Shown here: positions 33,198 through 55,049 of the stretch, one piece after another | Layout of the letters: the number at the start of each line of letters is the position of its first letter | How positions within the stretch are numbered: the first letter of the stretch is position 1 | DNA from: Allomesorhizobium camelthorni | GTDB lineage: Bacteria; Pseudomonadota; Alphaproteobacteria; Rhizobiales; Rhizobiaceae | DNA: 64,000 bases | Assembly: GCF_011045125.1 (NCBI RefSeq) | Contig: NZ_JAAKZF010000019.1 | Coordinates: 18,828 to 82,827 of the forward strand | Reading direction: 5' to 3' | Made by a program: the position numbers and the translations under genes | The notes under the pieces: model-generated | Told to the model about the DNA's origin: nothing | Seen by the model: the letters and a program-made list of their open reading frames with translations, nothing else | Database searches by the model: none

Positions 33198-33889
33198 ACC
33201 GTGCCGATCAGCATGAACCTGGTGTATTTCTTCATCGGCAGCGCGCCGGCGAAGGCGATCTCGCTGAGGCCGGCCAGCTGCTCGAAGGCTTCCAGCGAGG
33301 GCACGCAGGCGATGTGCGTCGGTTCGCTGAAATAATCGTTGGACTGGAGCAGGACGCGCGTGCCGGGCGGCAACAGCGCGAGCCAGGCGCGCAGATCGGC
33401 GATGTGCTCACAACTGGTGTTGACGACGAGGTCGGGCCGGCTCCCGGCATAGTCGAGCGTGTACATGTCGCCGGTCGAGGCGCGGAAGCGATCCTTCCAG
33501 CGCTCGTTCAGCGTCTTGGCCACCTCGGCCACGCCCGGATCGATGTCGATGCTTTCGATGGCGCCGATGTCGAAGCGGGGATCGTCGAACAGCATCGCCG
33601 CCAGAACGCCGTACCAGCCGCCGACGATCCAGATGCTGCCGAATCGGGCGCCGCAGCTTTCGAAAAGTTTGTCGCGCGCCCACAATTTGCAGGCGACCTG
33701 CTTGTGGTTGAAGGCGTTGCCGACATCGGCCTGAGGGTGCCTGGCGATGACCTTCGCGAGGCCGCCGACCAGCGAACAGCCGCAGTATGCGGCGATTCCG
33801 CGGGTCAGGTCGAAGGCTGTCTCGCGCCAGTCGGCGCCGGGATCGGTCTGGGTGGCGTCCATGATGCACGTGTTGTAAGCTTCAGCCAT
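33194..33889 (-). CDS. Class I SAM-dependent methyltransferase-like protein
   Basis: 231 residues from ATG 33889; an alternative ATG at 33862 gives 222. The Rossmann-type SAM site is suggested by SIWIVGGWYGVLAAML (motif I), ESIDIDPGVAEVA (acidic loop, adenosine contact) and DLVVNTSCEHIADLRAWL (motif IV region). Substrate unknown. It is the only minus-strand gene in this part, head-to-head with another methyltransferase-like gene with 29 bases between starts, and tail-to-tail with glycosyltransferase copy 2. Its N terminus (DWRETAFDLTRGIAAYCGCS) resembles nothing I recognise. Confidence 0.7.
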   Translation of the reverse strand: MAEAYNTCIMDATQTDPGADWRETAFDLTRGIAAYCGCSLVGGLAKVIARHPQADVGNAFNHKQVACKLWARDKLFESCGARFGSIWIVGGWYGVLAAMLFDDPRFDIGAIESIDIDPGVAEVAKTLNERWKDRFRASTGDMYTLDYAGSRPDLVVNTSCEHIADLRAWLALLPPGTRVLLQSNDYFSEPTHIACVPSLEAFEQLAGLSEIAFAGALPMKKYTRFMLIGTV

Positions 33890-33918
33890 CCGGGGTGCAA
33901 CCAACGCAATCTGACCAT

Positions 33919-34512
33919 ATGAACCCGAAACCGTTCGAAGCCGTTCCGCCATCCGACGGCGCCGGACAGAACCTGCCGCATCTGTCCGGTCCTGCCGCCG
34001 CCATACGCCAGGTGCTGGCGGCGCATTTCGTGCGCGGCTGTCCGCATGTGCTCGAAATCGGCGGGCACAGGCGGCCGATCACCGGCTATCTTACCCATGC
34101 GCCGCTGTCGGTCACCTCGATCGACCCGAAGACCGCCGAATACGAGGCCGAAGAACTCAACGGCCGCCCTTGCCGCGTGCGCCACATCGCCCGCAAGTTT
34201 CAGGATGTCGAACTCGACTATGCGCCGCGCAGCTACGGCCTTGTGCTGCTCGGCTACTCGCTGAAGCCTTTCGGCAAGCGCGAGCCGCTCGGCAAACTCA
34301 TGTTCTCGCTGGTCGACAACGCCGGCGTGGTGGTTATCGATTACACGCCCGAGTTCGAGCGCGCGGCTTCGCAGGTTCCGTCGATCCTTTCGCGCCCGAC
34401 GCTCACCAACTATTGCAGCTTCGAACTCAAGCTCGAAGATCCGGAGATCGCCGCCACGCCCTATGCCAGGCGGCGCTTTCACGTGCTTCATCCCTCCGGT
34501 TCAGCGGCCTGA
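33919..34512 (+). CDS. SAM-dependent methyltransferase-like hypothetical protein
   Basis: 197 residues. A shortened Rossmann core is visible: HVLEIGGHRRPITGYL (motif I with a basic replacement in the glycine loop), VTSIDPKTAEY (acidic loop) and YGLVLLGYSLKPFG. The C-terminal part lacks clear family marks. It starts 29 bases from the divergent methyltransferase gene and ends 8 bases before the ABC-like gene, so it probably heads that transcript. A modifying role on the sugar chain is an inference from position only. Confidence 0.6.
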   Translation: MNPKPFEAVPPSDGAGQNLPHLSGPAAAIRQVLAAHFVRGCPHVLEIGGHRRPITGYLTHAPLSVTSIDPKTAEYEAEELNGRPCRVRHIARKFQDVELDYAPRSYGLVLLGYSLKPFGKREPLGKLMFSLVDNAGVVVIDYTPEFERAASQVPSILSRPTLTNYCSFELKLEDPEIAATPYARRRFHVLHPSGSAA

Positions 34513-34520
34513 ACTCGCCC

Positions 34521-37235
34521 ATGGAACAAAGCCTGGCCCGCTATATCTGGACGCACACCTGGAAGCAGCAGCTCTGGATATTGGCGGTCGTCGCGATGTC
34601 GATGATCCCGTTCTACATGTCGTTCAACCTGCCAAAGTTGATCGTCAACGGGCCAATACAGGGCCAAGGCTTTGAAACTCCCGGAACCACGCAGCCATTC
34701 CTGCGGGTTGCCTTCGATCTTCCGGTGCTCGGCGAAACCGTATTCTTTTCCGGAATATCGCTCGACCGCGAACAGACGCTTTTCGCTCTCAGCATGGTGT
34801 TCCTGCTCCTGGTGATCGTGAACGGCCTGTTCAAGCTCTACATCAACACCTACAAGGGCCGCCTCGGCGAAAGGATGCTGCGGCGCATCCGCTTCGAACT
34901 CGTCGATCTCGTGCTCAGATTTCCGCCTCACCAGTTCAAGCGGGTGAAATCGGCCGAAATCGCGACCATGGTGAAGGACGAGGTCGAGCCGCTCGGCGGC
35001 TTCATCGGCGACGCCTTCGTGCAACCGGCCCTGCTCGGCGGGCAGGCGCTGACGGCGATGCTGTTCATCATGCTCCAGAACTTCTGGCTCGGGCTGGTCG
35101 CGCTGGTGATCGTCGCGATCCAGCTCGGCATCATCCCCAGGATGCGACGCAGGCTGATCGAACTCGGCCGCCAGCGGCAGCTTACCGCCCGACAGCTTTC
35201 CGGCCGGGTCGGCGAGATCGTCGACGGCATCGGCGCCATCCACAACCACGACACGTCGAACTACGAGCGCGCCGACATCGCCGCGCGGCTCGGCCGCATC
35301 TTCAAGATCCGCTACGACCTCTACCAGTGGAAATTCCTGGTCAAGTTCATCAACAACTTCCTGGCGCAGGTCACGCCGTTCCTGTTCTACCTGATCGGCG
35401 GCTATCTGGCGCTGCAGGGCCGCCTCGATGTCGGGCAGCTCGTGGCGGTAATCGGCGCCTATAAGGATCTGCCCGGCCCGATGAAGGACCTGATCGACTG
35501 GGACCAGGCGCGCCAGGACGTACAAGTTAAATACGCTCAGGTGGTCGAGCAGTTCAGCATCGACCATATCGTGGATTCCCGCATCCAGGCCGTGTCGCCG
35601 GAAAGCGTCCCGGCGCTGGATGCGCCGATCGCCGCCGTCAATCTGTCGCTGGTCGACGACAGCGGCGCAAGGCTGCTCGAGCACGTCTCGGTGCAGATCA
35701 AGCCGGGCGAGAAGGTGGCCGTGGTCGGAACCGCCGCAGGCGGCGCGGAGGTTTTCGCGGAAGCGGTCGCGCGGCTGATCTGGCCCGAAAGCGGCAGGAT
35801 CGCCATCGGCGGCAAAGATCTTCTCGAACTGCCGGAATCGGTGGTGGGGCGGCGCATGGCCTACGCCTCGTCCGACGCGTTTCTTGCGCAGGGAACGCTG
35901 AGCGACAATCTGCTTTACGGCCTCAAGCACGCGCCGCTGACGCCAACGGTCTATGACGGCGAACGGGCGACGCAGCGCAACTGGGAGGTGGGCGAAGCGC
36001 TCAAGGCCGGCAACCCCGATTTCGACCTGAACAGCGACTGGGTCGACTACGCCGCGGCAGGCTCCACAGGCCCGGACGACATCTTGCTGGTGATACGGCC
36101 GGTGCTCGAGGCGGTGGCGCTGTCGCGCGACATACTCGACCTCGGATTGCGCGCATCGGTCGAACCGTCGCGCCATCCCGAGATCGTCGACCGCATCGTG
36201 GAATTGCGTCAGGCGCTGCGAGAGCGCGTCGCGGCCGAAGGGGTGAGCGGACTGGTCGTGCCGTTCGAGCCGGGAGCATACAACCCGCAGGCCACGGTCG
36301 GCGAAAACCTGCTTTTCGGCACCGCGACGGGACCGGAGCTTGCCGACAAGGCGCTGGCTTCCAATCCGTACTTCCTGTCGGTGCTGAAGTCTGCCGGGCT
36401 CGACGAAGTTCTCTACAATATGGGCCTGGAGATCGCCGGCAACGCCATCGAGCTGTTCAGCGACCTGCCGCCAGACCACCCGTTCTTCCAGCAGCTCGCC
36501 TTCATGACCGCCGACGAGATCCCCGGCTACACGGTGCTGCTGCAGAAGCTCAAGGGGCGCAGCTATGCCACGGTTTCCGAGCAGGACCGCGCCCAGATCA
36601 TCATGCTGAGCTTCGCTTATATCGAACCCAGGCATCGCTTCGGCCTGCTGACCGACGATCTGATGGCGAGGATCGTCGAGGCGCGCGGCCGCTTCCATGA
36701 AGGCCTGCCGAAGGAATTGGCCGGCGCTATCCAGCGCTACGATCCGATGCGCTTCAGCACTGCGGCGAGCCTGATGGACAATGTCCTGTTCGGGCGCATC
36801 GGCCACAATCAACCGGACGGGCCGGAGCGCATCCGCGCGATCGTTCGCGAAATCCTCGACGAACTCGGCCTCTACGACGAGGTGCTGGGCATCGGCCTCG
36901 AATTCAATGTCGGTGTGGGCGGCAGGCGGCTGACCGGAGCGCAGCGGCAGAAGCTGGACCTGGCGCGTGCGCTGCTCAAGCGCGCCGATTTCCTGATCCT
37001 CAACCGGCCGCTGTCGGCGCTGGACCAGCGGGCGCAGGACCAGATCGTACGCAACGTACTCGAGGAAGCGAAGCGCGACGGCCGTGATCCGGCTATCATC
37101 TGGGTGTTAGAAAATCCGGCCATGGCGCAACTGTTCGACCGCGTAATCGTTTTCCATGGCGGAGAACTGGTGGAAGATGGAACGCACGAGACACTCGCGG
37201 CCGGAAACGGTATCTTCAAGGGATTGCTGTCATGA
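34521..37235 (+). CDS. Degenerate ABC-exporter-like membrane protein with enlarged, motif-less nucleotide-binding domain
   Basis: 904 residues. Residues 1-345 are a type I exporter membrane domain (about six helices, WILAVVAMSMIPFYMSF to FLFYLIGGYLALQ). The rest is one ABC domain of about 560 residues, more than twice the usual size. Every ATP motif is lost: Walker A reads GTAAGGAE (403-410; Lys to Ala409), the Q-loop Gln is Ser (YASSDAFL), the signature is LTGAQ (804-808), Walker B is LILNRP (Asp to Asn828, Glu to Arg829) and the H-loop His is absent (WVLENPA). The insertion repeats the post-Q-loop segment three times: LSDNLLYG, VGENLLFG and LMDNVLFG. Hydrolysis is unlikely; a scaffold, channel or sensor role is inferred. 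A cyclic-nucleotide-binding gene follows after 39 bases. Confidence 0.85.
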   Translation: MEQSLARYIWTHTWKQQLWILAVVAMSMIPFYMSFNLPKLIVNGPIQGQGFETPGTTQPFLRVAFDLPVLGETVFFSGISLDREQTLFALSMVFLLLVIVNGLFKLYINTYKGRLGERMLRRIRFELVDLVLRFPPHQFKRVKSAEIATMVKDEVEPLGGFIGDAFVQPALLGGQALTAMLFIMLQNFWLGLVALVIVAIQLGIIPRMRRRLIELGRQRQLTARQLSGRVGEIVDGIGAIHNHDTSNYERADIAARLGRIFKIRYDLYQWKFLVKFINNFLAQVTPFLFYLIGGYLALQGRLDVGQLVAVIGAYKDLPGPMKDLIDWDQARQDVQVKYAQVVEQFSIDHIVDSRIQAVSPESVPALDAPIAAVNLSLVDDSGARLLEHVSVQIKPGEKVAVVGTAAGGAEVFAEAVARLIWPESGRIAIGGKDLLELPESVVGRRMAYASSDAFLAQGTLSDNLLYGLKHAPLTPTVYDGERATQRNWEVGEALKAGNPDFDLNSDWVDYAAAGSTGPDDILLVIRPVLEAVALSRDILDLGLRASVEPSRHPEIVDRIVELRQALRERVAAEGVSGLVVPFEPGAYNPQATVGENLLFGTATGPELADKALASNPYFLSVLKSAGLDEVLYNMGLEIAGNAIELFSDLPPDHPFFQQLAFMTADEIPGYTVLLQKLKGRSYATVSEQDRAQIIMLSFAYIEPRHRFGLLTDDLMARIVEARGRFHEGLPKELAGAIQRYDPMRFSTAASLMDNVLFGRIGHNQPDGPERIRAIVREILDELGLYDEVLGIGLEFNVGVGGRRLTGAQRQKLDLARALLKRADFLILNRPLSALDQRAQDQIVRNVLEEAKRDGRDPAIIWVLENPAMAQLFDRVIVFHGGELVEDGTHETLAAGNGIFKGLLS

Positions 37236-37274
37236 TAGTCTTGGACAGCTTTGATTGGGGCAAGGGTTACGGTC

Positions 37275-37739
37275 ATGCTTCTCAACGATGAAGTCGGAAT
37301 GCTGCGGCGGGTGCCGCTGTTCTCGAATGTGGAGCCGGCCAAGCTCAAGCTCCTGGCCTTCACCTCCGACCGCGTGAGCTACGGCGCCGGGCAAATCCTG
37401 TTCCGCCAGGGCGACGAGGGCGACGCGGCCTATGTCGTCCTGTCCGGCAAGGCCGACATCATCGTCGACTCGCCGAGCGGGCAGATAAAGGTCGCCGAGG
37501 TCGAGCCCAACGAGATCGTCGGCGAAATCGCGATCTTGTGCGACGTATCGCGAACCGCCACCGTGCAGGCGTCGATGCCGCTCGAAGCGCTGCGCATCCG
37601 AAAGGATCATTTCCTGCGGCTGCTCAGGGAATTTCCTGAAATGACGATCGAGATCATCCGCGTGCTCGCCGACCGGCTCGGGCACACGACGGCGGAACTT
37701 TCCGACGCGCGCAGCCAGGCGCGCCAGGCCAAGCACTAG
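37275..37739 (+). CDS. Stand-alone cyclic-nucleotide-binding domain protein
   Basis: 154 residues, a single Crp-type cNMP-binding domain without helix-turn-helix or membrane segment. The beta-barrel (VSYGAGQILFRQGDEGDAAY, VVLSGKADIIV) is followed by an intact phosphate-binding cassette, GEIAILCDVSRTATV, with the Glu and Arg that hold ribose and phosphate, so it should bind cAMP or cGMP. AAGGG precedes the ATG. It lies 39 bases after the degenerate ABC gene, so its likely partner is that membrane protein. Not a transcription factor. Confidence 0.9.
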   Translation: MLLNDEVGMLRRVPLFSNVEPAKLKLLAFTSDRVSYGAGQILFRQGDEGDAAYVVLSGKADIIVDSPSGQIKVAEVEPNEIVGEIAILCDVSRTATVQASMPLEALRIRKDHFLRLLREFPEMTIEIIRVLADRLGHTTAELSDARSQARQAKH

Positions 37740-37869
37740 GCGCACTCGTTTCGCCCGGCCGCGGACGCAGCGTAAATTGAACGAAAGGCGGTGAGTTGCC
37801 TGTCTCGCTATATTGCGCCAGTCTGGCTAGGATAGCTCCCCGACGGGAGCCGACGGGCGAAGATATAGA

Positions 37870-38784
37870 ATGAACGATGACTTGTTCCAGGTTCGATTCT
37901 GGGGAGTTCGCGGCAGCGTCCCCGTTTCGGGCGCCCAGTATCAGCGCTACGGCGGCAACACCATATGCGTGGAGATGCGCTGCGGGCCGCATACGCTGCT
38001 CTTCGATGCAGGCTCGGGAGCCCGCCCGGCCGGCGAGGCGCTGATGGCGGCGGGCGTCGACCAGTTCGACGTGTTCTTCACCCATTGCCATTACGATCAC
38101 ATCATCGGGCTGCCGTTCTTCTTTCCGCTTTACAATCCGCGTATCGACCTCACGGCATGGTCGGGTCACCTCGCCGGCCGCATGACCACTCAGGAAATGC
38201 TCGGCGAATTCATGCGCCCGCCCTGGTTTCCGGTCGCCATGGAAGTTTGCAGGGCGTGTGTCGGGACGCGGGATTTCGTCGCCGGAGACATCCTGAAACC
38301 GCAGGAAGGCATAACGATCAGGACCGGCAGCCTGACCCATCCGGGCGGCTGCGTCGGCTACCGCGTCGAATGGGGCGGCCGCGCGGTGTGCTTGATCAGC
38401 GACACCGAACATGAGCCCGGCAAGCTCGATCCGGTCGTGCTGGGGCTCATCGAAGACGCCGATCTGGTGCTCTACGACTGCACCTACACCGAGGAAGAAA
38501 TGCTGCGCAAGCGCGGCTACGGCCACTCGACATGGCAGCAGGGCGTCAAGCTTTGCGAGGCTGCCGGCGCGCGCCGGCTGGCGATTTTCCATCACGATCC
38601 TTCGCGCACCGACGACCAACTCGCCGCGATGGAGAAAGAGGCGATGGCGGCCTTTCCCGGCGCTTTCGCCGCCATGGACGGGCAGACGCTCGAATTTCCG
38701 CGATTGAAGCTGCCCAAGCCGTCGCCGCTCAGGCAAGCAGCTCGCCAACCGGCCGCCAGCGGCAAGCGCCGCTCGCTGCCGTAA
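37870..38784 (+). CDS. Metallo-beta-lactamase-fold hydrolase
   Basis: 304 residues. Metal-binding motif HCHYDH (His72, His74, Asp76, His77), with the further ligands His in GSLTHPGG, Asp in LISDTEHEPG and His in AIFHHDPSR: a complete two-metal site. The N terminus FWGVRGSVPVSG and the GNTICVEM segment match the PhnP/phosphodiesterase-like branch (COG1235-type), so hydrolysis of a phosphodiester such as a cyclic nucleotide is possible but unproven. The C-terminal 20 residues are Pro/Arg/Lys-rich, and its last 56 bases overlap the deacetylase gene on the opposite strand. Confidence 0.88.
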   Translation: MNDDLFQVRFWGVRGSVPVSGAQYQRYGGNTICVEMRCGPHTLLFDAGSGARPAGEALMAAGVDQFDVFFTHCHYDHIIGLPFFFPLYNPRIDLTAWSGHLAGRMTTQEMLGEFMRPPWFPVAMEVCRACVGTRDFVAGDILKPQEGITIRTGSLTHPGGCVGYRVEWGGRAVCLISDTEHEPGKLDPVVLGLIEDADLVLYDCTYTEEEMLRKRGYGHSTWQQGVKLCEAAGARRLAIFHHDPSRTDDQLAAMEKEAMAAFPGAFAAMDGQTLEFPRLKLPKPSPLRQAARQPAASGKRRSLP

Positions 38785-39475
38785 CCTCGAACAGGCGCTC
38801 GAGGAACGACCAGGCGACCTCGTCATGCACGAGGTGATGGCTTAGCAGGCCGACGGGACCGCCCTCGCCCCGGAATGCGAGTTCGAGCTGCGCCACGATT
38901 TCAGAAATGAGCGCCGCATGGTCGCGGCCGCCGCGATTGCCGCGCCAATCCATGATGTCGACGGTGCTGTTGAGCATGCGTATGGGGGCCGGCCCGGGCG
39001 CGCCGAACACCGACAGCGCCGAAAAGCCTATGCCGGCAAGGTGCGGCAGCAGGTCTGCATCAATCCTGTTCCATGGCGGCACCAGCATGGGTGCGAAACG
39101 CCCGGCATGCAGGCGCTGCAGGCGCGCGCGCCCTTGCGAAAGTTCCGCCAGAACGATGTCGCGGGGGCGATGGTGTCCGAGTTCCTGCTTCTTTTCGCCC
39201 TGAGGGGCGTGGTTCTCGTGCGACCAGCCGTGGACCGCCACCGTGACATGGTTTTCGCGCGCCAGCCGCTCGGCCAATGGCGCTCCGGTCCAAGCCGGAA
39301 TGACCGCAAGCGCGACCGGCGCCTGGTAGGTAGCGGTCATCGCGAGCAGCCGGTCGAGCGCGGCGGTAGGCTCGATCGCGTCGTCGTCGCGCAGCCAGAA
39401 ATCGGCGGTCCGGCCGGCCTGAAGCCAGCGCGCCAGTTCTCTCGTCAGAGGCTGCCAGATTTCGCTGGGCGTCAT
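38729..39475 (-). CDS. Polysaccharide-deacetylase-like protein
   Basis: 248 residues. NodB-like barrel features: FWLRDDDAIEPT (the catalytic/metal Asp pair), VAVHGWSHENH (metal His motif HxxxH) and VPPWNRIDADLLPHL. There is no signal peptide or membrane segment, so it would act in the cytoplasm, for instance on a lipid-linked or nucleotide-linked sugar. It overlaps the upstream glycosyltransferase gene by 4 bases (ATGA) and is thus its co-translated partner. Its 3' end overlaps the metallo-hydrolase gene tail-to-tail by 56 bases. Confidence 0.8.
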   Translation of the reverse strand: MTPSEIWQPLTRELARWLQAGRTADFWLRDDDAIEPTAALDRLLAMTATYQAPVALAVIPAWTGAPLAERLARENHVTVAVHGWSHENHAPQGEKKQELGHHRPRDIVLAELSQGRARLQRLHAGRFAPMLVPPWNRIDADLLPHLAGIGFSALSVFGAPGPAPIRMLNSTVDIMDWRGNRGGRDHAALISEIVAQLELAFRGEGGPVGLLSHHLVHDEVAWSFLERLFEVTAASGACRWRPVGELLA

Positions 39476-40557
39476 GTTCGGGCCTCTGGCAGTATCGCAG
39501 CCAGGCGCCTGGCCGCCGCTTCGAGCGAGCGCTCGTCAAGGACGAACCGCCGCGCGGCCGCGCCTAGTTTCTGTCTCTCGGCCTCATTCGTCAGCAGCCG
39601 CTCGATAGCCTCCGCGTATGCGGCGACATCTCCCGGCGGCGTCAGCAGGCCGGTCGTTCCGTGCCGGACGACCTCGGGAACGCCCGCAATCGCCTGCGCC
39701 ACCACCGGCAGCCCCGCGGCCTGCGCCTCCAGATAAGCAAGACCGTAGGCTTCGCCGCAGCCCGGCCAGACATAGACGCCCGCGCCGCGCAAAAGTGACG
39801 GCACTTCGGCCGGCGGCCTTTCGCCCAGCCAGTCGATGCGCTCCGGGGGTATCCGCGAGAATTCCGCCTGCACTTTGGCGCGGCAAACGCCGTCGCCGAT
39901 GACCGACAAGCGCCAGGACAAATGTGCAAGCCGCTCCAGCGCGTGGGCGAGCATCCGGTAGCTCTCCATCTTGTCGCCTGGACGCATCATGCCAACCGCG
40001 ACCAGAAGGGACGGATCGGCGGCGGGCGGCGGCGCGGCAAAGGCCGAAACGTCGATAAAGGGCGGCAGCAGTTCGAAGCGGGCCCGCGGCGCGATTTCGG
40101 CCAGTCCGTCGCGGTCTCTGGCGGTGAAGCAGACGTTCAGCGCCGCGTGTCTTACAATGTCCGCCAGCCGCGCCTGGTTTTCAGCCCATATCCCGATGTT
40201 GCGGCGGGTCGAATAAGAGGCCTCCGCGGTGACGTAGGGAATATGGAAGCGGGAGGAGAGCGTGGGCCCGAGAAGATCGGGGGCCTTGTAGTAGGGGTGG
40301 TAGCAGAACCAGAGGTCGGGTTTTTTCCCGGTTTCCCACAAGGCCGACAGGCGGGCGATTTCGCGCTCGGCTTCGGCCAGGGCCGCGGCATGCGACTCGG
40401 CCGTCGGGTTCGCGGAAAAACTGCGAAACTCCGAGGCCAGTTCGACCGTATATCCGGCAAGCTCCAGCGCCGCCTTCAGCATCCGCGCCATCTGGCGGTC
40501 GCCCGACGGCACGGGATGATCCGGCGATTTGAGCGGCGCGTAGTAGGCAATTCGCAT
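39472..40557 (-). CDS. Glycosyltransferase family 4
   Basis: 361 residues from ATG 40557 with AGGTGG upstream. GT-B fold: N-terminal RIAYYAPLKSPDHPVPSGDR with the glycine-poor acceptor loop, then SLLVAVGMMRPGDKMESYR, the donor-side WLGERPPAEVPSLLRGAGV and VYVWPGCGEAYGLAYLEAQA, which holds the E(x7)E-type motif, and GVPEVVRHGTTGLLTPPGDV. Cytoplasmic. It forms a two-gene minus-strand operon with the deacetylase-like gene and is divergent from the DUF3095 gene across 94 bases that must hold both promoters. Confidence 0.9.
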   Translation of the reverse strand: MRIAYYAPLKSPDHPVPSGDRQMARMLKAALELAGYTVELASEFRSFSANPTAESHAAALAEAEREIARLSALWETGKKPDLWFCYHPYYKAPDLLGPTLSSRFHIPYVTAEASYSTRRNIGIWAENQARLADIVRHAALNVCFTARDRDGLAEIAPRARFELLPPFIDVSAFAAPPPAADPSLLVAVGMMRPGDKMESYRMLAHALERLAHLSWRLSVIGDGVCRAKVQAEFSRIPPERIDWLGERPPAEVPSLLRGAGVYVWPGCGEAYGLAYLEAQAAGLPVVAQAIAGVPEVVRHGTTGLLTPPGDVAAYAEAIERLLTNEAERQKLGAAARRFVLDERSLEAAARRLAAILPEART

Positions 40558-40651
40558 CGCGCCACCTATCTGGGGAATCGGGCGCAAGTCAATTTCGGGG
40601 TCACCTCGGATTGATCGCCAGCCAACCGGGAGATGTGCTATTTCACCGACC

Positions 40652-41812
40652 ATGGAAAACAAGCTCCTCGATCAACCGTTTCTCGACACGCTGCCGCAGT
40701 TTGCGCAGTTCGAGGGCGTGGCCGACGCCGACAATTACCGCCCGCTGCCCGACGACTGGTCGCTGGCTACAGCCGATATAGTCGACTCGACCAAGGCGAT
40801 CGCAACAGGAGGCTACAAATCGGTCAACATGGCCGGCGCCAGCGTGATTTCGGCGCTGCTCAACGCGCTCGACCGCCGCGACCTGCCCTTCGTCTTCGGC
40901 GGCGACGGGGCGCTGGTCGCCTTCCCCGCCACGGCCACCGCGACCGTCCGCGAGGCGCTGTCGGCCGTCCAGGCATGGGTGGCGGACGAGCTGGAGCTGA
41001 CGATGCGCGCCGCGATCGTGCCGGTGGCCGATATCCGCGCCCGGGGACTGGACGTCCGGGTGGCGCGGTTCCAGGCCAGCGGCGAGGTTTCCTACGCCAT
41101 GTTCACCGGAGGCGGCGCAAGCTGGGCGGAAGCCGAGATGAAGGCCGGCCGCTTCACGGTCGAGCCTGCCCCGGCGGGCACGCGGCCGGATCTGGCCGGG
41201 CTGTCATGCCGCTGGAACCCGATCGAGGCGCGGCATGGCGAGATCGTCTCGATCATCGCGGTCCCGGGCCCGGCCGGCAGCGGCAAGGCGTTCCAGCAAT
41301 TGGTGGCCGATATCGTGGCGCTGGTGGGCGAGGAGGAGCGAGGCGGCCATCCCGTGCCGCCGGAGGGACCCGGTTTCAGCTTCCCGCCCAAGGGGCTCGA
41401 AGCCGAGGCGCGCGCGCTTGCGCCCAAAGGAAAACGGTTCTGGCCTAAACTGATGATTCTGGGGCAGACCGCGCTCATCGGCATACTTTCGAAGCTCCGC
41501 CTGTCGCTTGGGCGGTTCGATCCGCTTCAGTATCGGAGCGACGTCGTCCGCAATTCCGATTTCCGGAAATTCGACGACGGCCTGAAAATGACGGTCGACC
41601 TCGACCGGGAGCGGCTGCGGCGGATCGAGGAGCGGCTCGAGCGGGCCGAACGCGAAGGGATTTGCAGCTACGGGCTGCACCGGCAGGATTCGGCGCTGAT
41701 GACCTGCATCGTCGCCACGCCACTGCAGCGCGACCACATCCATTTCGTGGACGGAGCGGCGGGCGGATACGCCATGGCCGCCAACACCCTGAAGGCGAAA
41801 GCGGCAGCCTGA
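40652..41812 (+). CDS. DUF3095 protein, nucleotidyl-cyclase-like fold
   Basis: 386 residues, no signal or clear membrane helix except a weak hydrophobic stretch (LMILGQTALIGIL, about 270). The N-terminal half resembles a class III cyclase core: ATADIVDSTKAIA places an Asp and Thr as in the first metal-binding strand, and FVFGGDGALVAFP gives the second Asp hairpin. The C-terminal half (from about residue 215) is the DUF3095-specific part, with LHRQDSALMTCIV near the end. Function of the family is not established. It is divergent from the glycosyltransferase gene and 79 bases before the FkbM gene, close to a second cyclase. Confidence 0.8.
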   Translation: MENKLLDQPFLDTLPQFAQFEGVADADNYRPLPDDWSLATADIVDSTKAIATGGYKSVNMAGASVISALLNALDRRDLPFVFGGDGALVAFPATATATVREALSAVQAWVADELELTMRAAIVPVADIRARGLDVRVARFQASGEVSYAMFTGGGASWAEAEMKAGRFTVEPAPAGTRPDLAGLSCRWNPIEARHGEIVSIIAVPGPAGSGKAFQQLVADIVALVGEEERGGHPVPPEGPGFSFPPKGLEAEARALAPKGKRFWPKLMILGQTALIGILSKLRLSLGRFDPLQYRSDVVRNSDFRKFDDGLKMTVDLDRERLRRIEERLERAEREGICSYGLHRQDSALMTCIVATPLQRDHIHFVDGAAGGYAMAANTLKAKAAA

Positions 41813-41891
41813 AACCCGCCCGTGGCACTGTTACCCGTCGCTGGCGCCACCTATATGACCATCCAAGATTGCAATCCCGAGCTGAAATTTC

Positions 41892-42710
41892 ATGAGCCGG
41901 ACATTCGAACGCGCGGAGCCGATAAAAACTGTCGATGTCCGCTATGCCGGCCGCACCGTCGCCCTTCCGGACATGTGCGAATACGCGAAATTCTACCGCA
42001 AGCTTTCCGGAAATTGCTGGGAAGCGAACACTTTCACTACTCTTGCGCGCAACCTCGACAGCGACACCGTGCTCATCGACATTGGCGCGTGGATCGGCGT
42101 GACGCCGATGTGGTCGGCGCAGGTTGCCCGCAAGGTGGTGGCGGTCGACCCCGATCCGAAATGCGCCGCGATCCTGAACGCGCTGGCGCCGGCAGCCGGC
42201 AATGTGACCGTGATAGAAGGCGCGCTCGCCGACTGCCGCAAGGTGGCGATCCATGCCGTCGACGGCTTCGGCAGTTCCGAAACCAGCATCCTCGACATCG
42301 GCAATGGCGCCGAGGCGTCGGCCCGCGGCTTCGGCATAGACGACATCATGCGTCATGCGGGAGGCGCGCCGGCCTTCGTCAAGATCGACATCGAAGGCTA
42401 CGAATACGAGATCGCAGGCGAACTGGCCAAGCTGAGGCATTACCCGTTGCGCGGGCTGCAGATCGCGGTCCATCCGCAATTGTACGAGAAGAGCCTGAGA
42501 GGCGGCTGGCTGTGGCGGCGGCTGCGCACCGCATGGGCGACATGGCGGCTGGGGAGGCAGCTGGGCCGCTTCATCCCTGGCCCCAGCCTCCACAAGTTCG
42601 ACAGTCTGGCGGCGTATATCCTGGGGGGAATCCTGTTTTGCGGCAAACCAAAGGGGGCGGATTTCGTGTTCGAACGCAATCCCGCTCCAACCTTCGAGGA
42701 CAAGCTATGA
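41892..42710 (+). CDS. FkbM-family methyltransferase
   Basis: 272 residues. SAM-binding core TVLIDIGAWIGVTPMWSA (motif I), VVAVDPDPKCAAIL (acidic loop), and the FkbM signature PAFVKIDIEGYEYEI with its conserved Asp-x-Glu-Gly. This family O-methylates sugars and other hydroxyls in glycan and polyketide pathways, so methylation of the polysaccharide or its precursor is likely. The stop overlaps the start of the cyclase gene (ATGA), an unusual coupling of a modification enzyme to a signalling enzyme. Start ATG 41892 has only a weak ribosome binding site. Confidence 0.9.
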   Translation: MSRTFERAEPIKTVDVRYAGRTVALPDMCEYAKFYRKLSGNCWEANTFTTLARNLDSDTVLIDIGAWIGVTPMWSAQVARKVVAVDPDPKCAAILNALAPAAGNVTVIEGALADCRKVAIHAVDGFGSSETSILDIGNGAEASARGFGIDDIMRHAGGAPAFVKIDIEGYEYEIAGELAKLRHYPLRGLQIAVHPQLYEKSLRGGWLWRRLRTAWATWRLGRQLGRFIPGPSLHKFDSLAAYILGGILFCGKPKGADFVFERNPAPTFEDKL

Positions 42711-44047
42711 GCATCACAAACGCAGACGTTTCCACCATCCTGATGGACAAGGTCGCCGACTGGCTGAGCCATTCGTCGCTCGTCGGCGACGATCTCGAAA
42801 CAATGGTGCGCGGCTTCTGCGAAAGGCTGGCCGCCGCGGGTCTTCCGCTGGCCCGCGTACATCTCAGCTTTTCGATGCTGCACCCGCTCTACGACGCGCT
42901 CGGCTTCACCTGGGAGCGCGGCACCGGCATGCATGTCGAAGGCTTCCGCAAGAAGCCCGGCGAGACTGCCGAGCGTTTCCTGCGCAGCCCCTATTACCAC
43001 CTGCTCAGCAACAATCTCGATCATCTCAGGCGGCGCATCGATCCGGAAGGACCGTCTGAGTTCCCGATCTTCGACGACCTCAAGCTGCTCGGCGTCACCG
43101 ACTATCTCGCCTTCAAGCATTGGTTCGACGGCGACAACAACCAGGGCATGCTCGGCTCATGGTCGACCGACAATCCCGGCGGCTTCAGCGAAAACATGAT
43201 CGCGGCGCTGCTGCGCGTGCAAAACCATCTGGCGGTGGCGGCCAAGATGGCGGTCCTCAGCAAGCTCGCCGACAATATGCTGACCACCTATCTCGGCGGC
43301 GACGCCGGCAAGCGCGTGTTGAACGGCCAGATCAAGCGCGGCGAGGGAGACACGATCCGCGCGGCGCTGGTGATGGCCGACATGCGCGGCTCGACCATGC
43401 TCGCGGAGCGCGAAGGCCGCGAGGTCTATATCGAGACGCTGAACCGCTTTTTCGACGCCATCGCGGCGCCCTTCAACCGCAGGGGTGGCCAGATCATGAG
43501 CTTTCTGGGCGACGGCTTCCTGGCCGTCTATCCCTGTGACCGTCACCGGGAGCCTTCGGAAATCGCCTGCCGGGCCGCACTTGCCGCAGCGTTCAAGGCG
43601 AGCGCCCGCATGGCCGACCTCAACGAGGAGAGGAAGCAGAAAGGGCTGGCCGAGATCGGCTACGGCATCGGACTGCATGTCGGCAATGTGATGTTCGGCA
43701 ATGTCGGCCTAACCGACCGCCTGACGTTCTCGGCCTTCGGCTCAGCCGTCAACGAGGTGCAGCGCCTGCAGGTGCTGACCAAGAAATATCCGCACCGCCT
43801 CATCGCCAGCAAGGATTTCGCAACCTATACCGGTGGAGGATGGGTGACGCTCGGCAAGGAGAAACTGGCCGGGGTGAGGCAGAAGCTGACGATCCTGCAC
43901 CCGGACGTCACCGACATCGAGATGACCGACGAGGACGGGTTCGAGGTGACTTACGACGGCATGTCGGACGCCGAGCAGTTGATGCTCTTGATTCGTGGTG
44001 GCGGACAATCCATGATTGAAGTGAACGGGGGAAAGAAGCTGCAATGA
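42707..44047 (+). CDS. Class III adenylate/guanylate-cyclase domain protein
   Basis: 446 residues, soluble. Residues about 1-200 form an N-terminal domain without recognised family (contains LGVTDYLAFKHWFDGDNNQG). The catalytic domain (about 220-410) shows MADMRGSTML with the first metal Asp, FLGDGFLAVYP with the second, and AVNEVQRL with the catalytic Asn and Arg. The purine-selecting Lys before the GD hairpin is replaced (IMSFLGDG), so base choice is uncertain. GAGGA precedes the ATG. It overlaps FkbM upstream and the polysaccharide lyase gene downstream, both by 4 bases. Its product is the natural ligand for the nearby cyclic-nucleotide-binding protein. Confidence 0.88.
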   Translation: MSITNADVSTILMDKVADWLSHSSLVGDDLETMVRGFCERLAAAGLPLARVHLSFSMLHPLYDALGFTWERGTGMHVEGFRKKPGETAERFLRSPYYHLLSNNLDHLRRRIDPEGPSEFPIFDDLKLLGVTDYLAFKHWFDGDNNQGMLGSWSTDNPGGFSENMIAALLRVQNHLAVAAKMAVLSKLADNMLTTYLGGDAGKRVLNGQIKRGEGDTIRAALVMADMRGSTMLAEREGREVYIETLNRFFDAIAAPFNRRGGQIMSFLGDGFLAVYPCDRHREPSEIACRAALAAAFKASARMADLNEERKQKGLAEIGYGIGLHVGNVMFGNVGLTDRLTFSAFGSAVNEVQRLQVLTKKYPHRLIASKDFATYTGGGWVTLGKEKLAGVRQKLTILHPDVTDIEMTDEDGFEVTYDGMSDAEQLMLLIRGGGQSMIEVNGGKKLQ

Positions 44048-45003
44048 ACACGACGATCCGCTCCGTCGGCCTGGCGGCCGCCTTTTGCATGTGCTGCCAG
44101 ACCGGCGCCTTGGCGAATTCGGACGTTCTCATCGACAGTTTCGACGGTTCCGATTTTTCCGAATCGGGCGGCCTTTATTACAAGGAAAATTTCGAACAAA
44201 GCGCGGGCCGCGTCGAATTCCAGAAAGCCGTGACCCGCAACGGCGGCGGGGCACTGAAACTCAGCATCAAGCCGCTCTGCGGGGCCACCGCAAGGAGTTG
44301 CAGCGAGCGTGCCGAGATCTGGGAAAAGCCCGAGCTGCGCGTGCCCTACGACCAGGGCGTCTGGTATGGCTTTGCCGTGAAATTCGCCGACCCGGTGCCG
44401 AATGACGACCATCGCTACCTGATCGCGCAGTGGAAGCGGGAGATCGAACCGGGCGCCGAAGGCGATTTCAGCCCCTTCTTCGCCTTGCGGCTGCGGCAGG
44501 GGAAGCTCCACGCCACGGTCGAAACCAACTATGTGGCTCCCACCAACAAGACCGGAGACGGCGTCGGGCCGAACTGCACGACCGGCGGCACGCCGGTCTG
44601 GCTCCGCCCCGAAACCAACCAGATGCGTGCGCTGGTGGCTACCGACGCCGCCTGGGGGCCCGGCGACGGCCCGCTGTTCAACACCTGTACGAACGCGATA
44701 AAGGTCATCGACCACGGCAACAAGCTGCCGGCTCCGGGTTCCGGCTGGATCGATTTCGCCGTCTACACCAAGCCCGGCCCGGACGGGACGGGCCACATTG
44801 AACTCTATGCCAACGGCAAGCCGGTCGTCACCGTCAAGGGGCACATCGGCCATGCCGACAGGGGCCTGGGCAAGAACCAGTACTTCAAATTCGGCCCCTA
44901 TCGCGCGGCGCATACAACCGAATGGACCGTCTATTATGACGATTTCCGCCGCTCGCCGCGCTGCGCCGACGTGCTGGCCGGGGCGCCCTGTCCGATGCAA
45001 TGA
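44044..45003 (+). CDS. Secreted polysaccharide lyase (heparin-lyase-I-like family)
   Basis: 319 residues with a Sec signal peptide (MNTTIRSVGLAAAFCMCCQT, cleavage near GALAN). The beta-jelly-roll pattern of the Polysacc_lyase (PF14099) family is visible: SCSERAEIWEKPELRVPYDQ, GVWYGFAVKF, LIAQWKREIEPG and NQYFKFGPYRAAH. Such enzymes cleave uronic-acid-containing polymers by beta-elimination in the periplasm or outside the cell. Seven or more Cys in the mature part suggest disulfides. It overlaps the cyclase gene by 4 bases and precedes an oligomer importer operon. Confidence 0.85.
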   Translation: MNTTIRSVGLAAAFCMCCQTGALANSDVLIDSFDGSDFSESGGLYYKENFEQSAGRVEFQKAVTRNGGGALKLSIKPLCGATARSCSERAEIWEKPELRVPYDQGVWYGFAVKFADPVPNDDHRYLIAQWKREIEPGAEGDFSPFFALRLRQGKLHATVETNYVAPTNKTGDGVGPNCTTGGTPVWLRPETNQMRALVATDAAWGPGDGPLFNTCTNAIKVIDHGNKLPAPGSGWIDFAVYTKPGPDGTGHIELYANGKPVVTVKGHIGHADRGLGKNQYFKFGPYRAAHTTEWTVYYDDFRRSPRCADVLAGAPCPMQ

Positions 45004-45152: not shown

Positions 45153-47051
45153 GTGCGGGCGATGAATTCAGGCGCTGACCTTTTAAGGATCGAAGACCTC
45201 GGCATATCCTTTGCGATCGTCGGTGGCCCTGTCCATGCGGTCAAGCGGGCCAATCTGCGCATCCTGCCGGGCAAGGTGACGGCGCTGGTCGGCGAATCCG
45301 GCTCCGGCAAATCGGTCATCAGCCAGGCGGTGATGGGGATTTTGCCGCAATCGGCGCGCGTGCGCGGCCGCATCCTGTTCAACGATCCGGAAAATTCCAA
45401 CGGCCCGGTCGACATCCTGCAGATGCCGCGCGACGGGCAGGAAATCAGGGCGGTGCGCGGGAGCCGCATCGGCAAGATATTCCAGGAGCCTATGACCTCG
45501 CTGTCGCCGCTGCACACGATCGGCGACCAGGTCGGCGAGGTGCTGAAGATCCATACCGAAATGTCCGGGGCGGAGATAAAAGACCGCACCAAAGAGATGC
45601 TCGGCCTGGTCGGTTTTCCCGATCCGCGCCGCGCCTACGACATGTACCCGTTCGAGCTGTCCGGCGGTCTGAGGCAACGCGCGATGATCGCGATGGCGCT
45701 GATCTGCCGGCCGGCGTTGCTGATCGCCGACGAACCGACGACGGCTTTGGACGTGACGATACAGGCGCAAATCCTGCAATTGCTGCGCGAGTTGCAGAGC
45801 AAGCTCAACATGGCGATGCTTTTGATCACGCACGATCTCGGCGTTGTGGCCAATGTCGCCGACGAGGTGGTGGTCATCTACCACGGCGAGATCATGGAGG
45901 CGGGCCCGGTCGAGGCTATCTTCCGCCGGCCCGGCCACCCCTATCTGAAGGGGCTGATGGCGGCCGTTCCGCATTTCGACATGAAAGCTGGTGAGCGTCT
46001 GAAGGCGTTGCGCGAGGTGCCGGTCAACGTCGAGAACCTGCTAGGCAAGCAGAAGCCGGCGAAAGCCGCTTCCGACACGCTGTTGTCGGTCTCCGGCCTG
46101 AGCAAATCCTTCACGACGCGAAAATCCGGCTGGTTCGGCAAGCACGCGCAGATCGCCGTGCGCGCTGTCGACGACGTCAGCTTCGACATAAAGCGGGGCG
46201 AATGCCTCGGCCTGGTCGGCGAGAGCGGCTGCGGCAAGACCACCGTCAGCAAGATATTGATGCGCGCAGTGACTCCCGAAGCCGGCTCGGTCATCTACAA
46301 CAGCGACCAGGGGCCTATCGACATCCTCGCCGCCCAAGGCGAAGCGCTGCGCACGCTTCGAACAAAAATCCAGATGGTCTTTCAGGATCCGGTCTCGTCA
46401 CTGTCGCCGCGCCTGACCGTGCAGAACATCCTCAGCGAGCCCTTGGAAATCCACGGCCGCGGCGATGCGCGCTCCCGGCTCGAGACCGTTCGCTCGCTGC
46501 TGCAGGCGATCGGGCTCGACCAGCGCTCGATCAACCGCTACCCGCACTCGTTTTCGGGCGGCCAGCGCCAGCGCATAGGAATTGCGCGCGCTCTGGCGCT
46601 TGGGCCCGACCTGCTGATCTGCGACGAGCCTGTTTCGGCACTGGACGTTTCCGTGCAAGCGCAGATACTAAACCTTCTGAAGGATCTGCAGAAGGAGCTC
46701 GGCCTGACCTATTTGTTCATCTCGCACAATCTCGCCGTGGTGGATTATATGGCCGACCGTATCGCCGTGATGTGCGGCGGCCGGATCGTGGAACTCGCGC
46801 CGCGCGAGACGCTGATGAAGCGGCCGGTCCATCCTTATACGCGCTCGCTGCTCGCTGCCGTACCGTTTCCCGATCTCGACCGGCCGCTCGACTTCGAGAC
46901 GCTGCAGGCCAGCGGCGCATCCGACACCAGCGCCTGGGCTCCACAATTCCGAGAGGACGGCGACGAGGACGCGCTGTCGCCCACCGATCTCGGCGGCGGC
47001 CATCTGGTTCTGGCGCGGCGAAGCGCCGACATGCGGGAGTTGCGGCAGTGA
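45153..47051 (+). CDS. Oligopeptide/oligosaccharide-type ABC transporter ATPase, two fused domains (DppD-DppF type)
   Basis: 632 residues; two complete ATPase domains in one chain. Domain 1: Walker A GESGSGKS, signature LSGGLRQR, Walker B LLIADEPTTALD, H-loop ITHDLG. Domain 2 (from about residue 310): GESGCGKT, FSGGQRQR, LLICDEPVSALD, ISHNLA. Both sites look active. Each domain ends with the oligopeptide-type RPxHPY(L/T) motif. GTG 45153 has AGGGGA at 4 bases; ATG 45162 is an alternative. First gene of a four-gene importer operon in the unusual order ATPase, binding protein, permease, permease. Confidence 0.93.
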   Translation: MRAMNSGADLLRIEDLGISFAIVGGPVHAVKRANLRILPGKVTALVGESGSGKSVISQAVMGILPQSARVRGRILFNDPENSNGPVDILQMPRDGQEIRAVRGSRIGKIFQEPMTSLSPLHTIGDQVGEVLKIHTEMSGAEIKDRTKEMLGLVGFPDPRRAYDMYPFELSGGLRQRAMIAMALICRPALLIADEPTTALDVTIQAQILQLLRELQSKLNMAMLLITHDLGVVANVADEVVVIYHGEIMEAGPVEAIFRRPGHPYLKGLMAAVPHFDMKAGERLKALREVPVNVENLLGKQKPAKAASDTLLSVSGLSKSFTTRKSGWFGKHAQIAVRAVDDVSFDIKRGECLGLVGESGCGKTTVSKILMRAVTPEAGSVIYNSDQGPIDILAAQGEALRTLRTKIQMVFQDPVSSLSPRLTVQNILSEPLEIHGRGDARSRLETVRSLLQAIGLDQRSINRYPHSFSGGQRQRIGIARALALGPDLLICDEPVSALDVSVQAQILNLLKDLQKELGLTYLFISHNLAVVDYMADRIAVMCGGRIVELAPRETLMKRPVHPYTRSLLAAVPFPDLDRPLDFETLQASGASDTSAWAPQFREDGDEDALSPTDLGGGHLVLARRSADMRELRQ

Positions 47052-48943: not shown

Positions 48944-48945
48944 AC

Positions 48946-49944
48946 GTGCTGCGATACATCATCTGGCGCATCGCCGTAATGATACCGACGCTGCTTCTGA
49001 TATCGGCGTTGATCTTCATCATCATCGAATTGCCGCCGGGCGACTATTTCGAAAGCTATGCCGCCGAATTGCGCGCCATGGGCGAAGGCGTCGACATGGA
49101 CAAGCTGGAGGCGCTGCGGGCGGAGTATGATTTCGACAAGCCGCCGGTGGTCCGCTACTTCCACTGGCTCGCGGGCATGCTGCAGGGCGATTTCGGCTAT
49201 TCGTTCGAATATCAGCTGCCGGTCAGCGACGTTGTCGGCGACCGGCTGTGGCTGACCGTCCTGGTCTCGTTCGTGACGATCGTCTTCACCTGGGTGATAG
49301 CCTTCCCGATCGGCATGTATTCGGCGACCCATCAGTATAGCTGGGGCGATTACGGCCTGACTTTCCTCGGCCTGATTGGCATAGCGATTCCCAATTTCAT
49401 GCTGGCGCTGATCCTGATGTATTTCGCCAATATCTGGTTCGGCACCTCGATCGGGCATCTGATGGACCAGCAATATCTCGGTGAGCCGATGAGCTGGGCC
49501 AAGGCCAAATCCATCCTCGAACATATCTGGATCCCGGTCATCATCATCGGCACCGCGGGCACGGCCGGAATGATCCGGCGGTTGCGCGCCAACCTGCTCG
49601 ACGAGCTTCAGAAGCAGTATGTGATGACGGCGCGCGCCAAGGGCCTGCATCCGTTCAAGACGCTGGTCAAATATCCGATGCGCATGGCGCTGAACTTCTT
49701 CATGTCGGACATCGGCTCGATCCTGCCGGCCATTATTTCCGGCGCCGAGATCACCGCGATCGTGCTTTCGCTCGAGACGACCGGCCCGATGCTGATCAAG
49801 GCGCTGCAGAGCCAGGACATGTATCTCGCCGGATCGTTCCTGATGTTCCTGGCATTCCTCACCGTCATCGGCGTCCTGATCTCCGATCTGGCGCTGGCGC
49901 TTCTCGATCCGCGCATCAGGCTACAGGGCGGCAGCACCAAATGA
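48946..49944 (+). CDS. DppB/OppB-type ABC transporter permease
   Basis: 332 residues from GTG 48946, 2 bases after the previous stop. Six membrane helices (first IAVMIPTLLLISALIFIIIE) with the family's LPPGDYF segment after helix 1 and the EAA-type docking loop YVMTARAKGLHPFKTLVKY. The periplasmic loop between helices 4 and 5 (WFGTSIGHLMDQQYLGEPMS) is longer than in simple dipeptide permeases. It overlaps the next permease gene by 4 bases. Confidence 0.92.
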   Translation: MLRYIIWRIAVMIPTLLLISALIFIIIELPPGDYFESYAAELRAMGEGVDMDKLEALRAEYDFDKPPVVRYFHWLAGMLQGDFGYSFEYQLPVSDVVGDRLWLTVLVSFVTIVFTWVIAFPIGMYSATHQYSWGDYGLTFLGLIGIAIPNFMLALILMYFANIWFGTSIGHLMDQQYLGEPMSWAKAKSILEHIWIPVIIIGTAGTAGMIRRLRANLLDELQKQYVMTARAKGLHPFKTLVKYPMRMALNFFMSDIGSILPAIISGAEITAIVLSLETTGPMLIKALQSQDMYLAGSFLMFLAFLTVIGVLISDLALALLDPRIRLQGGSTK

Positions 49945-55048: not shown

Positions 55049-55049
55049 G

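What the first reader, a model, noticed from the sequence alone, without database searches (positions are those of the whole stretch)
34521..44047. Possible cyclic-nucleotide circuit wired into a polysaccharide locus
Seen: within 9.5 kb lie a stand-alone cNMP-binding protein with an intact phosphate cassette, a class III cyclase, a DUF3095 protein with cyclase-like Asp motifs, a two-metal metallo-hydrolase of a branch that includes phosphodiesterases, and the dead ABC protein, interleaved with glycosyltransferases, an FkbM methyltransferase, a deacetylase-like protein and a lyase. Known: cAMP/c-di-GMP control of exopolysaccharide exists, but through transcription factors or PilZ proteins. Inference: a self-contained maker, reader and possibly eraser of a cyclic nucleotide gates export or processing of the polymer.
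Basis: inference. Interest (0 to 1): 0.85.

Follow-up and report, generated by a model that had tools for sequence, protein, structure and literature searches.

The report
cAMP-gated, ATPase-dead ABC glycan exporter
A rhizobium-like bacterium carries a gene for an ABC-type membrane protein that has lost its ATP-splitting residues, beside genes for a cyclic-nucleotide-binding protein, a class III cyclase-type enzyme and glycosyltransferases, a grouping that recurs, with or without the cyclase, across many Alphaproteobacteria; the set is predicted to let a cyclic nucleotide, likely cAMP, switch the movement of a surface sugar.

Summary
The 904-aa ABC protein (34521-37235) and the cyclic-nucleotide-binding protein CBP (37275-37739) are a near-constant pair: CBP directly follows, or is fused to, the ABC protein in 57 of 57 loci of the window's order and 71 of 78 loci from named genomes (sets overlap by at least seven contigs). 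At least three of five glycan genes lie nearby in 32 of 48 and 57 of 63 loci.

CBP keeps the phosphate-binding Glu and Arg, and Thr-Thr where CRP has its cAMP-reading Thr-Ser. Only 1 of 138 ABC proteins keeps all five scored ATPase residues; its helical subdomain is repeated three times.

Class III cyclases sit beside the pair in 32 of 48 and 29 of 63 loci and do not form one clade (p-AU 9e-8). DUF3095 has a predicted two-domain class III cyclase fold.

Many loci lack the linked cyclase, the MBL hydrolase or both, so 'self-contained' fits only part of the family. Ligand, hydrolase activity and transport are untested. Best reading: a cAMP-type signal likely gates an ATPase-dead ABC glycan translocator.

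The parts
29602..30816 (+). GT28a, GT28-type glycosyltransferase (Glyco_tran_28_C)
   Evidence: Pfam; within 7.5 kb of ABC in 37 of 48 and 58 of 63 loci
30820..32067 (+). GT4a, GT4-type glycosyltransferase
   Evidence: Pfam (118.7 bits); 37 of 48 and 61 of 63 loci
32061..33197 (+). GT28b, second GT28-type glycosyltransferase
   Evidence: Pfam; 32 of 48 and 51 of 63 loci
33194..33952 (-). MT1, 252-aa protein without Pfam match (methyltransferase-like by eye); not core
   Evidence: matched in 2 of 140 regions
33895..34512 (+). MT2, 205-aa protein without Pfam match; not core
   Evidence: no match listed in 140 regions
34521..37235 (+). Pseudo-ATPase ABC protein, 904 aa: type IV exporter membrane domain, degenerate NBD with long insertion
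   Evidence: Pfam; motif tables; AF2 model (mean pLDDT 84.4); Foldseek
35727..35750 (+). Walker A remnant (GTAAGGAE; Lys and Ser/Thr lost)
35838..36260 (+). Helical-subdomain unit copy 1 (residues 440-580; first NLLYG motif)
   Evidence: hhalign against copy 3, 95.4%
36261..36725 (+). Helical-subdomain unit copy 2 (residues 581-735; ENLLFG)
   Evidence: hhalign against copy 3, 97.5%; against copy 1, 89.5% over 25 columns
36726..37070 (+). Helical-subdomain unit copy 3 (residues 736-850; DNVLFG, then signature and Walker B remnants)
37275..37739 (+). CBP, stand-alone cNMP-binding protein (154 aa from the likely ATG; ORF opens at 37251)
   Evidence: Pfam; cassette and Thr-Thr; follows or fused to ABC in 57 of 57 and 71 of 78 loci
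37870..38784 (+). MBL-fold metallo-hydrolase, HxHxDH intact; putative phosphodiesterase
   Evidence: Pfam; motifs in the window and 40 relatives; PDB relatives RNase Z and ELAC1
38729..39475 (-). PDA, polysaccharide-deacetylase-like protein
   Evidence: Pfam 21.9 bits, cut-off 23.1; 30 of 48 and 49 of 63 loci
39472..40662 (-). GT4b, GT4-type glycosyltransferase; its ORF start overlaps DUF3095, so the true start is probably downstream
   Evidence: Pfam; 31 of 48 and 60 of 63 loci
40652..41812 (+). DUF3095, predicted two-domain class III cyclase fold; linked only in near relatives
41892..42710 (+). FkbM-family methyltransferase, overlaps the cyclase start by 4 nt
42707..44047 (+). Class III nucleotidyl cyclase (446 aa; PF00211 match at residues 220-356)
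   Evidence: Pfam; residues; tree
44044..45003 (+). Polysaccharide lyase PF14099, overlaps the cyclase stop by 4 nt
   Evidence: Pfam (126.4 bits)
45153..47051 (+). Opp/Dpp-type importer ATPase, first gene of an importer operon reaching 51116
   Evidence: Pfam; OppB- and OppC-type genes in 38 of 111 loci, the binding protein in 42 of 111

Best explanation
An ABC-type membrane protein whose ATPase residues are lost is encoded directly beside a cyclic-nucleotide-binding protein and within a glycosyltransferase cluster, and a cyclic nucleotide, likely cAMP, is predicted to switch it so that a lipid-linked or nascent glycan is moved across the inner membrane. Shown by sequence: the pairing, the fusions, the loss of ATPase residues, the conserved cNMP-contact residues, cyclases of several lineages at the site, and the linkage to glycosyltransferases. 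Inferred: CBP docks on the pseudo-NBD, where the fused forms carry it at or near the C-terminus. Cyclic-nucleotide binding would then do the opening and closing that ATP does in ordinary exporters, or would license a partner motor. The neighbouring cyclase would raise, and the MBL hydrolase would lower, the signal. Where no cyclase is linked, the general cAMP pool would serve.
For: (1) Pairing: CBP within 600 nt downstream on the same strand, or fused, in 57 of 57 and 71 of 78 loci; about 0.0006 expected per locus. (2) Fusions: L043 and L053 are ABC+CBP; L146 and L162 are ABC+CBP+GGDEF-like, the GGDEF part over the Pfam cut-off in L162 only. (3) Reader residues: cassette Glu in 124 and Arg in 128 of 130 relatives; CRP Thr127 column Thr in 110 of 130; Ser128 column Thr or Ser in 98 of 130; window E, R, T, T. 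(4) Negative correlate: L028 and L031, which lost the Arg, show neither MBL nor cyclase in the fetched stretch. (5) Writer: class III cyclase within 7.5 kb in 32 of 48 and 29 of 63 loci, about 0.1 expected; the slot cyclases tested do not form one clade against 19 own-genome paralogues (p-AU 9.4e-8). (6) Pseudo-ATPase: Walker A Lys and Ser/Thr, Walker B Asp, catalytic Glu and switch His all kept in 1 of 138. (7) Exporter fold: Foldseek hits P-glycoprotein, TmrAB, MsbA, PCAT1. (8) Glycan genes: at least 3 of 5 in 32 of 48 and 57 of 63 loci. (9) In the window the cyclase overlaps a methyltransferase and a polysaccharide lyase gene by 4 nt each.
Against: Nothing shows transport, ligand or physical contact. 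The CNBD of the ABC exporter HetC binds ppGpp and was not significantly protected by cAMP (PMC10986499, abstract and passages), so the domain name does not settle the ligand. The window's own cyclase lacks the purine Lys, so its product is uncertain. Many loci lack a linked cyclase or MBL. L061 and L067 have ABC-CBP-MBL-cyclase without glycan genes in the fetched stretch. On the ABC tree neither MBL with cyclase (5 pairs, on average 2 the same way and 0 opposite, median p 0.5) nor cyclase with glycan genes (9 pairs, on average 1.0 the same and 0.3 opposite, median p 1) covaries beyond ancestry. A pseudo-ATPase leaves the energy source of export open. 35 of 80 named-locus ABC proteins keep the Walker A Lys, so some may still bind ATP. 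The six label changes on the cyclase tree need not all be arrivals; some may be departures.
Confidence: 0.5

Rival explanations
1. The ABC-like protein is not a transporter but a membrane-anchored receptor: its pseudo-NBD and CBP form a cyclic-nucleotide-sensitive scaffold that recruits or regulates the glycosyltransferases.
For: ATPase residues are lost by different substitutions in different members while many invariant columns stand in residues 17-345 of the membrane part; helical units multiply, as in a docking platform.
Against: The membrane part is an exporter domain (Pfam, Foldseek); no flippase or polymerase was named among the 33 window ORFs scanned, so a translocator would otherwise be missing there.
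Confidence: 0.22
2. CBP senses another ligand (ppGpp as in HetC, or a pyrimidine cNMP as in PycTIR), and the cyclase next door serves something else.
For: HetC precedent; Asn, the uracil-reading residue of PycTIR (PMC11224242 passages), stands in the CRP Ser128 column in 18 of 73 named loci; the window cyclase lacks the purine Lys.
Against: Window CBP and most relatives keep Glu, Arg and Thr-Thr of the cAMP pocket; cyclases stand at this place far above the expected rate and come from more than one lineage.
Confidence: 0.16
3. The genes share a cell-envelope neighbourhood by ancestry only; signalling and glycan parts are not functionally coupled.
For: Independent-pairs tests find no covariation beyond ancestry; some loci carry only one half.
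Against: Cyclases of several lineages at the same place, ABC+CBP fusions in loci of different families (independence not tested) and recurrence across the order, other Alphaproteobacteria and some Gammaproteobacteria argue for selection on linkage.
Confidence: 0.08
4. A Pycsar-like anti-phage system.
For: PADLOC hits the cyclase with PycC models (best 62.8 bits) and CBP with Pycsar effector CNBDs (best 54.1 bits).
Against: No TIR or other effector domain on CBP; the UTP- and CTP-reading PycC residues named in PMC11224242 (passages) are not matched by eye in the window cyclase; the same block recurs with glycan genes in many families.
Confidence: 0.03

Closest known systems
HetC (cyanobacterial peptidase-containing ABC exporter with N-terminal CNBD)
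   Same: ABC exporter with a CNBD-fold domain that is needed in vivo (PMC10986499, abstract and passages)
   Different: HetC has a peptidase domain and an essential ATPase residue; its CNBD binds ppGpp. Here no peptidase match, ATPase residues lost, and CBP is usually a separate protein with an intact cNMP pocket
TIGR03896 CNBD proteins and NHLM-type ABC exporters (TIGR03796)
   Same: CNBD protein associated with an ABC exporter operon (that association is recalled); CBP and ABC score 45.0 and 150.2 bits
   Different: Far below the curated cut-offs (161 and 853 bits)
MFS transporters fused to CNBDs
   Same: A CNBD attached to a transporter as a regulatory domain (PMC10710835, one passage)
   Different: Different transporter fold; no linked cyclase or glycan genes are mentioned in the passage
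Pycsar (PycC + PycTIR/PycTM)
   Same: Class III-type cyclase with a CNBD receptor in one locus
   Different: Receptor here is an ABC partner without effector domain; base-reading residues differ
Mammalian two-domain adenylyl cyclases (tmAC, sAC) and 6yii
   Different: About 10% identity; best Foldseek E only 5.7e-4; no related PDB sequence at E up to 1; activity unknown
RNase Z / ELAC1 and the NF041851 cyclic-nucleotide phosphodiesterase model
   Same: MBL fold with HxHxDH and C-terminal metal motifs
   Different: 35 bits against the NF041851 cut-off of 400; activity unknown
Cyclic-nucleotide-gated channel SthK
   Same: Membrane protein gated by a CNBD (recalled); CBP matches its CNBD at 45.0 bits
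   Different: Here the membrane part is an ABC exporter fold, not a channel

Membership tests
cNMP-binding domain proteins (PF00027) | Pfam match over cut-off | tested here: met
   78.5 bits, cut-off 27.5
cNMP-binding domain proteins (PF00027) | Phosphate-binding cassette Glu and Arg | tested here: met
   Window E and R in the E. coli CRP columns; 124 and 128 of 130 relatives
cAMP-reading CRP-type CNBD | Thr127/Ser128-equivalent Thr or Ser | tested here: met
   Window T,T; role of Ser128 from PMC11224242 passages, role of Thr127 recalled
cAMP-reading CRP-type CNBD | Measured cAMP binding | not testable with these tools
   Needs purified protein
Active ABC exporter ATPase | Exporter membrane domain | tested here: met
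   ABC_membrane 70.3 bits, cut-off 28; Foldseek TmrAB, MsbA
Active ABC exporter ATPase | Walker A Lys, Walker B Asp and Glu, switch His | tested here: not met
   Window has A, N, R, E at these columns
Class III nucleotidyl cyclase | PF00211 match and two metal-binding Asp | tested here: met
   30.8 bits, cut-off 21.9; ADMRGST and LGDG; roles recalled
Canonical class III adenylyl cyclase | Purine-binding Lys | tested here: not met
   Ser in the window and its four nearest slot relatives; Lys in most other aligned cyclases
Cyclic-nucleotide phosphodiesterase NF041851 | Score over curated cut-off | tested here: not met
   35 of 400 bits
MBL-fold hydrolase | HxHxDH metal motif | tested here: met
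   HCHYDH; intact in window and 40 relatives
Pycsar | CNBD receptor carrying an effector domain | tested here: not met
   CBP carries only PF00027
HetC-type PCAT | Peptidase domain | tested here: not met
   Only ABC_membrane and ABC_tran found
Class III cyclase fold (for DUF3095) | Two cyclase homology domains, Asp pair in the first | tested here: met
Polysaccharide deacetylase PF01522 | Score over curated cut-off | tested here: not met
   21.9 of 23.1 bits

The most novel reading that the evidence does not exclude
A new class of membrane machine: an ABC exporter that has given up ATP hydrolysis, multiplied its helical coupling subdomain threefold, and is opened by cyclic-nucleotide binding to a docked or fused CNBD, with its own locally encoded and repeatedly replaced cyclase and eraser, to gate glycan export without any transcription factor or PilZ protein.
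Probability: 0.33. Interest if true: 0.88.

Novelty: new variant of a known kind. Interest (0 to 1): 0.72.

Why it matters
If true, cAMP-type signals control bacterial glycan transport directly at the membrane machine, not only through transcription factors. It would give a function to a pseudo-ATPase ABC family found in 73 of 199 genomes of the window's order (partial matches included) and in named Alphaproteobacteria and some Gammaproteobacteria. It would also place DUF3095, a term that no paper of the held library contains, in the two-domain class III cyclase fold. Cyclases of different lineages at one fixed receptor locus are a natural experiment on how signalling pairs are rewired.

Tried and rejected
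Chance adjacency: rejected by counts. Pycsar defence: considered because of PADLOC hits, rejected for lack of an effector domain and of the reported base-reading residues. HetC-type peptide exporter: rejected, no peptidase match. DUF3095, FkbM and lyase as core parts: rejected, rare beside the ABC gene in relatives. The window's UDP-sugar dehydrogenase (51122-52501) as the same gene as the dehydrogenase-like neighbour (by eye) in L013, L015, L018: not supported, matches over 150 bits only in L021 and L023. Covariation of MBL, cyclase and glycan genes on the ABC tree: inconclusive. No related PDB sequence for DUF3095. Literature: in searches no listed title pointed to this locus; listings were capped (15 of 40 papers, 10 of 148), and only open-licence PMC papers are held.

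Limits of the counts. L015, L018 and L044 were left out (no ABC ORF of at least 2400 nt); 137 loci were scored, 111 with 4 kb on both sides. Gene labels are best hits of home-made profiles over fixed scores: GT4 and importer-ATPase labels can include other members of those large families, and the cyclase profile was built from slot cyclases. Of the seven named misses, L156 has its CBP in an ORF that my ORF caller extended over the ABC gene. Slot-cyclase tree: the window plus 21 of 68 slot domains, and 19 of the 20 paralogues fetched out of 40 matches; three paralogues are long branches. The second AU test named its group after a tree was seen, so its p (0.0008) is only indicative. The regex count (118 of 130) missed the GGDEF-bearing fusions because only their last 200 residues were scanned; the column counts replace it.

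Full report
What is there. The window lies in a 7.30 Mb assembly whose nearest named relatives by the ABC protein are Pseudaminobacter, Mesorhizobium and Phyllobacterium. Between 29.6 and 45 kb stand two GT28-type and two GT4-type glycosyltransferases, a deacetylase-like gene, the ABC protein, a single-domain cNMP-binding protein (CBP), an MBL hydrolase, DUF3095, an FkbM methyltransferase, a class III cyclase and a polysaccharide lyase. The cyclase gene overlaps the methyltransferase stop and the lyase start by 4 nt each, so signalling and glycan genes look co-transcribed here.

Linkage in relatives. In 199 genomes of the order, the ABC protein matches in 73 (partial and weak matches included), the MBL protein in 64, DUF3095 in 57 and the cyclase, a large family, in 82. 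By hand count, 58 of the 64 MBL genomes also have an ABC match, against 15 of the other 135. I fetched 60 regions from 56 of these genomes and 80 named loci (among them Roseibium, Stappia, Pseudovibrio, Azospirillum, Inquilinus, Marinobacterium). CBP directly follows or is fused to the ABC protein in 57 of 57 and 71 of 78 loci; of the seven misses four have no CBP hit, two (L171, L172) have it elsewhere, and one (L156) is an ORF-calling artefact. By record title the other six are Gammaproteobacteria or unplaced. At least three of the five glycan genes lie within 9 kb in 32 of 48 and 57 of 63 loci; MBL within 7.5 kb in 33 of 48 and 23 of 63; a class III cyclase in 32 of 48 and 29 of 63; DUF3095 in 6 of 48 and 0 of 63 (all). 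Importer genes like the window's OppB and OppC lie in 38 of 111 loci. The two sets share at least seven contigs and their members are related, so these are counts, not independent events.

The ABC protein. Its membrane part is an exporter domain, and the model (mean pLDDT 84.4, two stretches under 50) finds ABC exporters such as P-glycoprotein, TmrAB, MsbA and PCAT1. Of 138 aligned family members only one (L147) keeps Walker A Lys and Ser/Thr, Walker B Asp, catalytic Glu and switch His together; Lys is kept in 1 of 58 rows of the order set (window included) and 35 of 80 named loci. Different members lost different residues, so ATP hydrolysis probably decayed more than once. The NBD insertion contains further copies of the unit that begins at the post-Q-loop xNLLFG motif: profile comparison gives 97.5% for copies 2 and 3, 95.4% for 1 and 3, and 89.5% over only 25 columns for 1 and 2 (each a search of one profile). 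The three motifs are recognisable in nearly all rows of the 77-sequence table.

Aligned to E. coli CRP taken from the K-12 record, CBP of the window has Glu and Arg at the ribose and phosphate positions and Thr-Thr at Thr127/Ser128. Of 130 relatives, 124 keep Glu, 128 Arg, 110 Thr at 127 and 98 Ser or Thr at 128. The roles of Ser128 in adenine reading and of Asn in uracil reading are from passages of PMC11224242; those of Glu72, Arg82 and Thr127 are recalled. The two members that lost the Arg, L028 and L031, sit in loci that show no MBL or cyclase; both genomes hold a second ABC-CBP-MBL-cyclase locus (L061, L067). Fusions tie reader to ABC protein: L043 and L053 (ABC-CNBD), L146 and L162 (ABC-CNBD-GGDEF-like; over the Pfam cut-off in L162 only).

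The putative eraser. The MBL protein keeps the metal motifs in the window and 40 relatives (by eye) and resembles RNase Z and ELAC1. Its score to the cyclic-nucleotide phosphodiesterase model NF041851 is far below the cut-off (35 of 400 bits). Phosphodiesterase activity is a guess from fold and neighbourhood. MBL and cyclase go together in raw counts (24 of 33 with MBL against 8 of 15 without; 20 of 23 against 9 of 40), but an independent-pairs test cannot separate this from ancestry, nor does it find the cyclase to covary with the glycan genes. On the ABC tree MBL needs 5 changes of state and the cyclase 13.

Mechanism. Most likely a cAMP-type ligand binds CBP, CBP acts on the pseudo-NBD, and the membrane domain moves a glycan intermediate made by the neighbouring glycosyltransferases; no Wzx or Wzy type gene was named among the 33 window ORFs scanned. 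The caution is HetC: its CNBD is required in vivo but binds ppGpp and was not protected by cAMP (PMC10986499, abstract and passages). CNBDs fused to MFS transporters are mentioned in one passage of PMC10710835. No listed title in nine capped searches of the open-licence library pointed to this locus or to DUF3095.

Verdict.

Noticed in passing
named loci, CBP C-helix: 18 of 73 CBPs from named loci have Asn in the CRP Ser128 column, the residue PycTIR uses to read uracil; part of the family may read another cyclic nucleotide.
   Followed up: no
L146:10001-13507 and L162:2074-5616: ABC protein, CNBD and a GGDEF-like domain in one polypeptide; GGDEF over the Pfam cut-off in L162 only.
   Followed up: partly
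L021:4222-5892: The slot cyclase here carries a 2Fe-2S (Fer2) domain, suggesting a redox-controlled writer.
   Followed up: no
window 45153-51116: An Opp/Dpp-type importer operon next to the glycan genes recurs: OppB- and OppC-type genes in 38 and the binding protein in 42 of 111 loci; it may recycle fragments of the product.
   Followed up: partly
window 52706-56324: A RuBisCO-large-family protein beside an SBD_N/NBD_C protein and a DHDPS-family enzyme, with DctM and TctA transporter genes nearby: looks like an acid-sugar degradation cluster.
   Followed up: no
L143:5591-6178 and L150:13633-14175: A histidine-phosphatase gene (cluster in 22 named loci; between GT28b and GT4b in L143) and a Methyltransf_17 gene (cluster in 24 named loci) recur beside the block.
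   Followed up: no
G000 genome: 40 class III cyclase matches at E up to 0.001 in one 7.3 Mb genome, a large set whose wiring is open.
   Followed up: no
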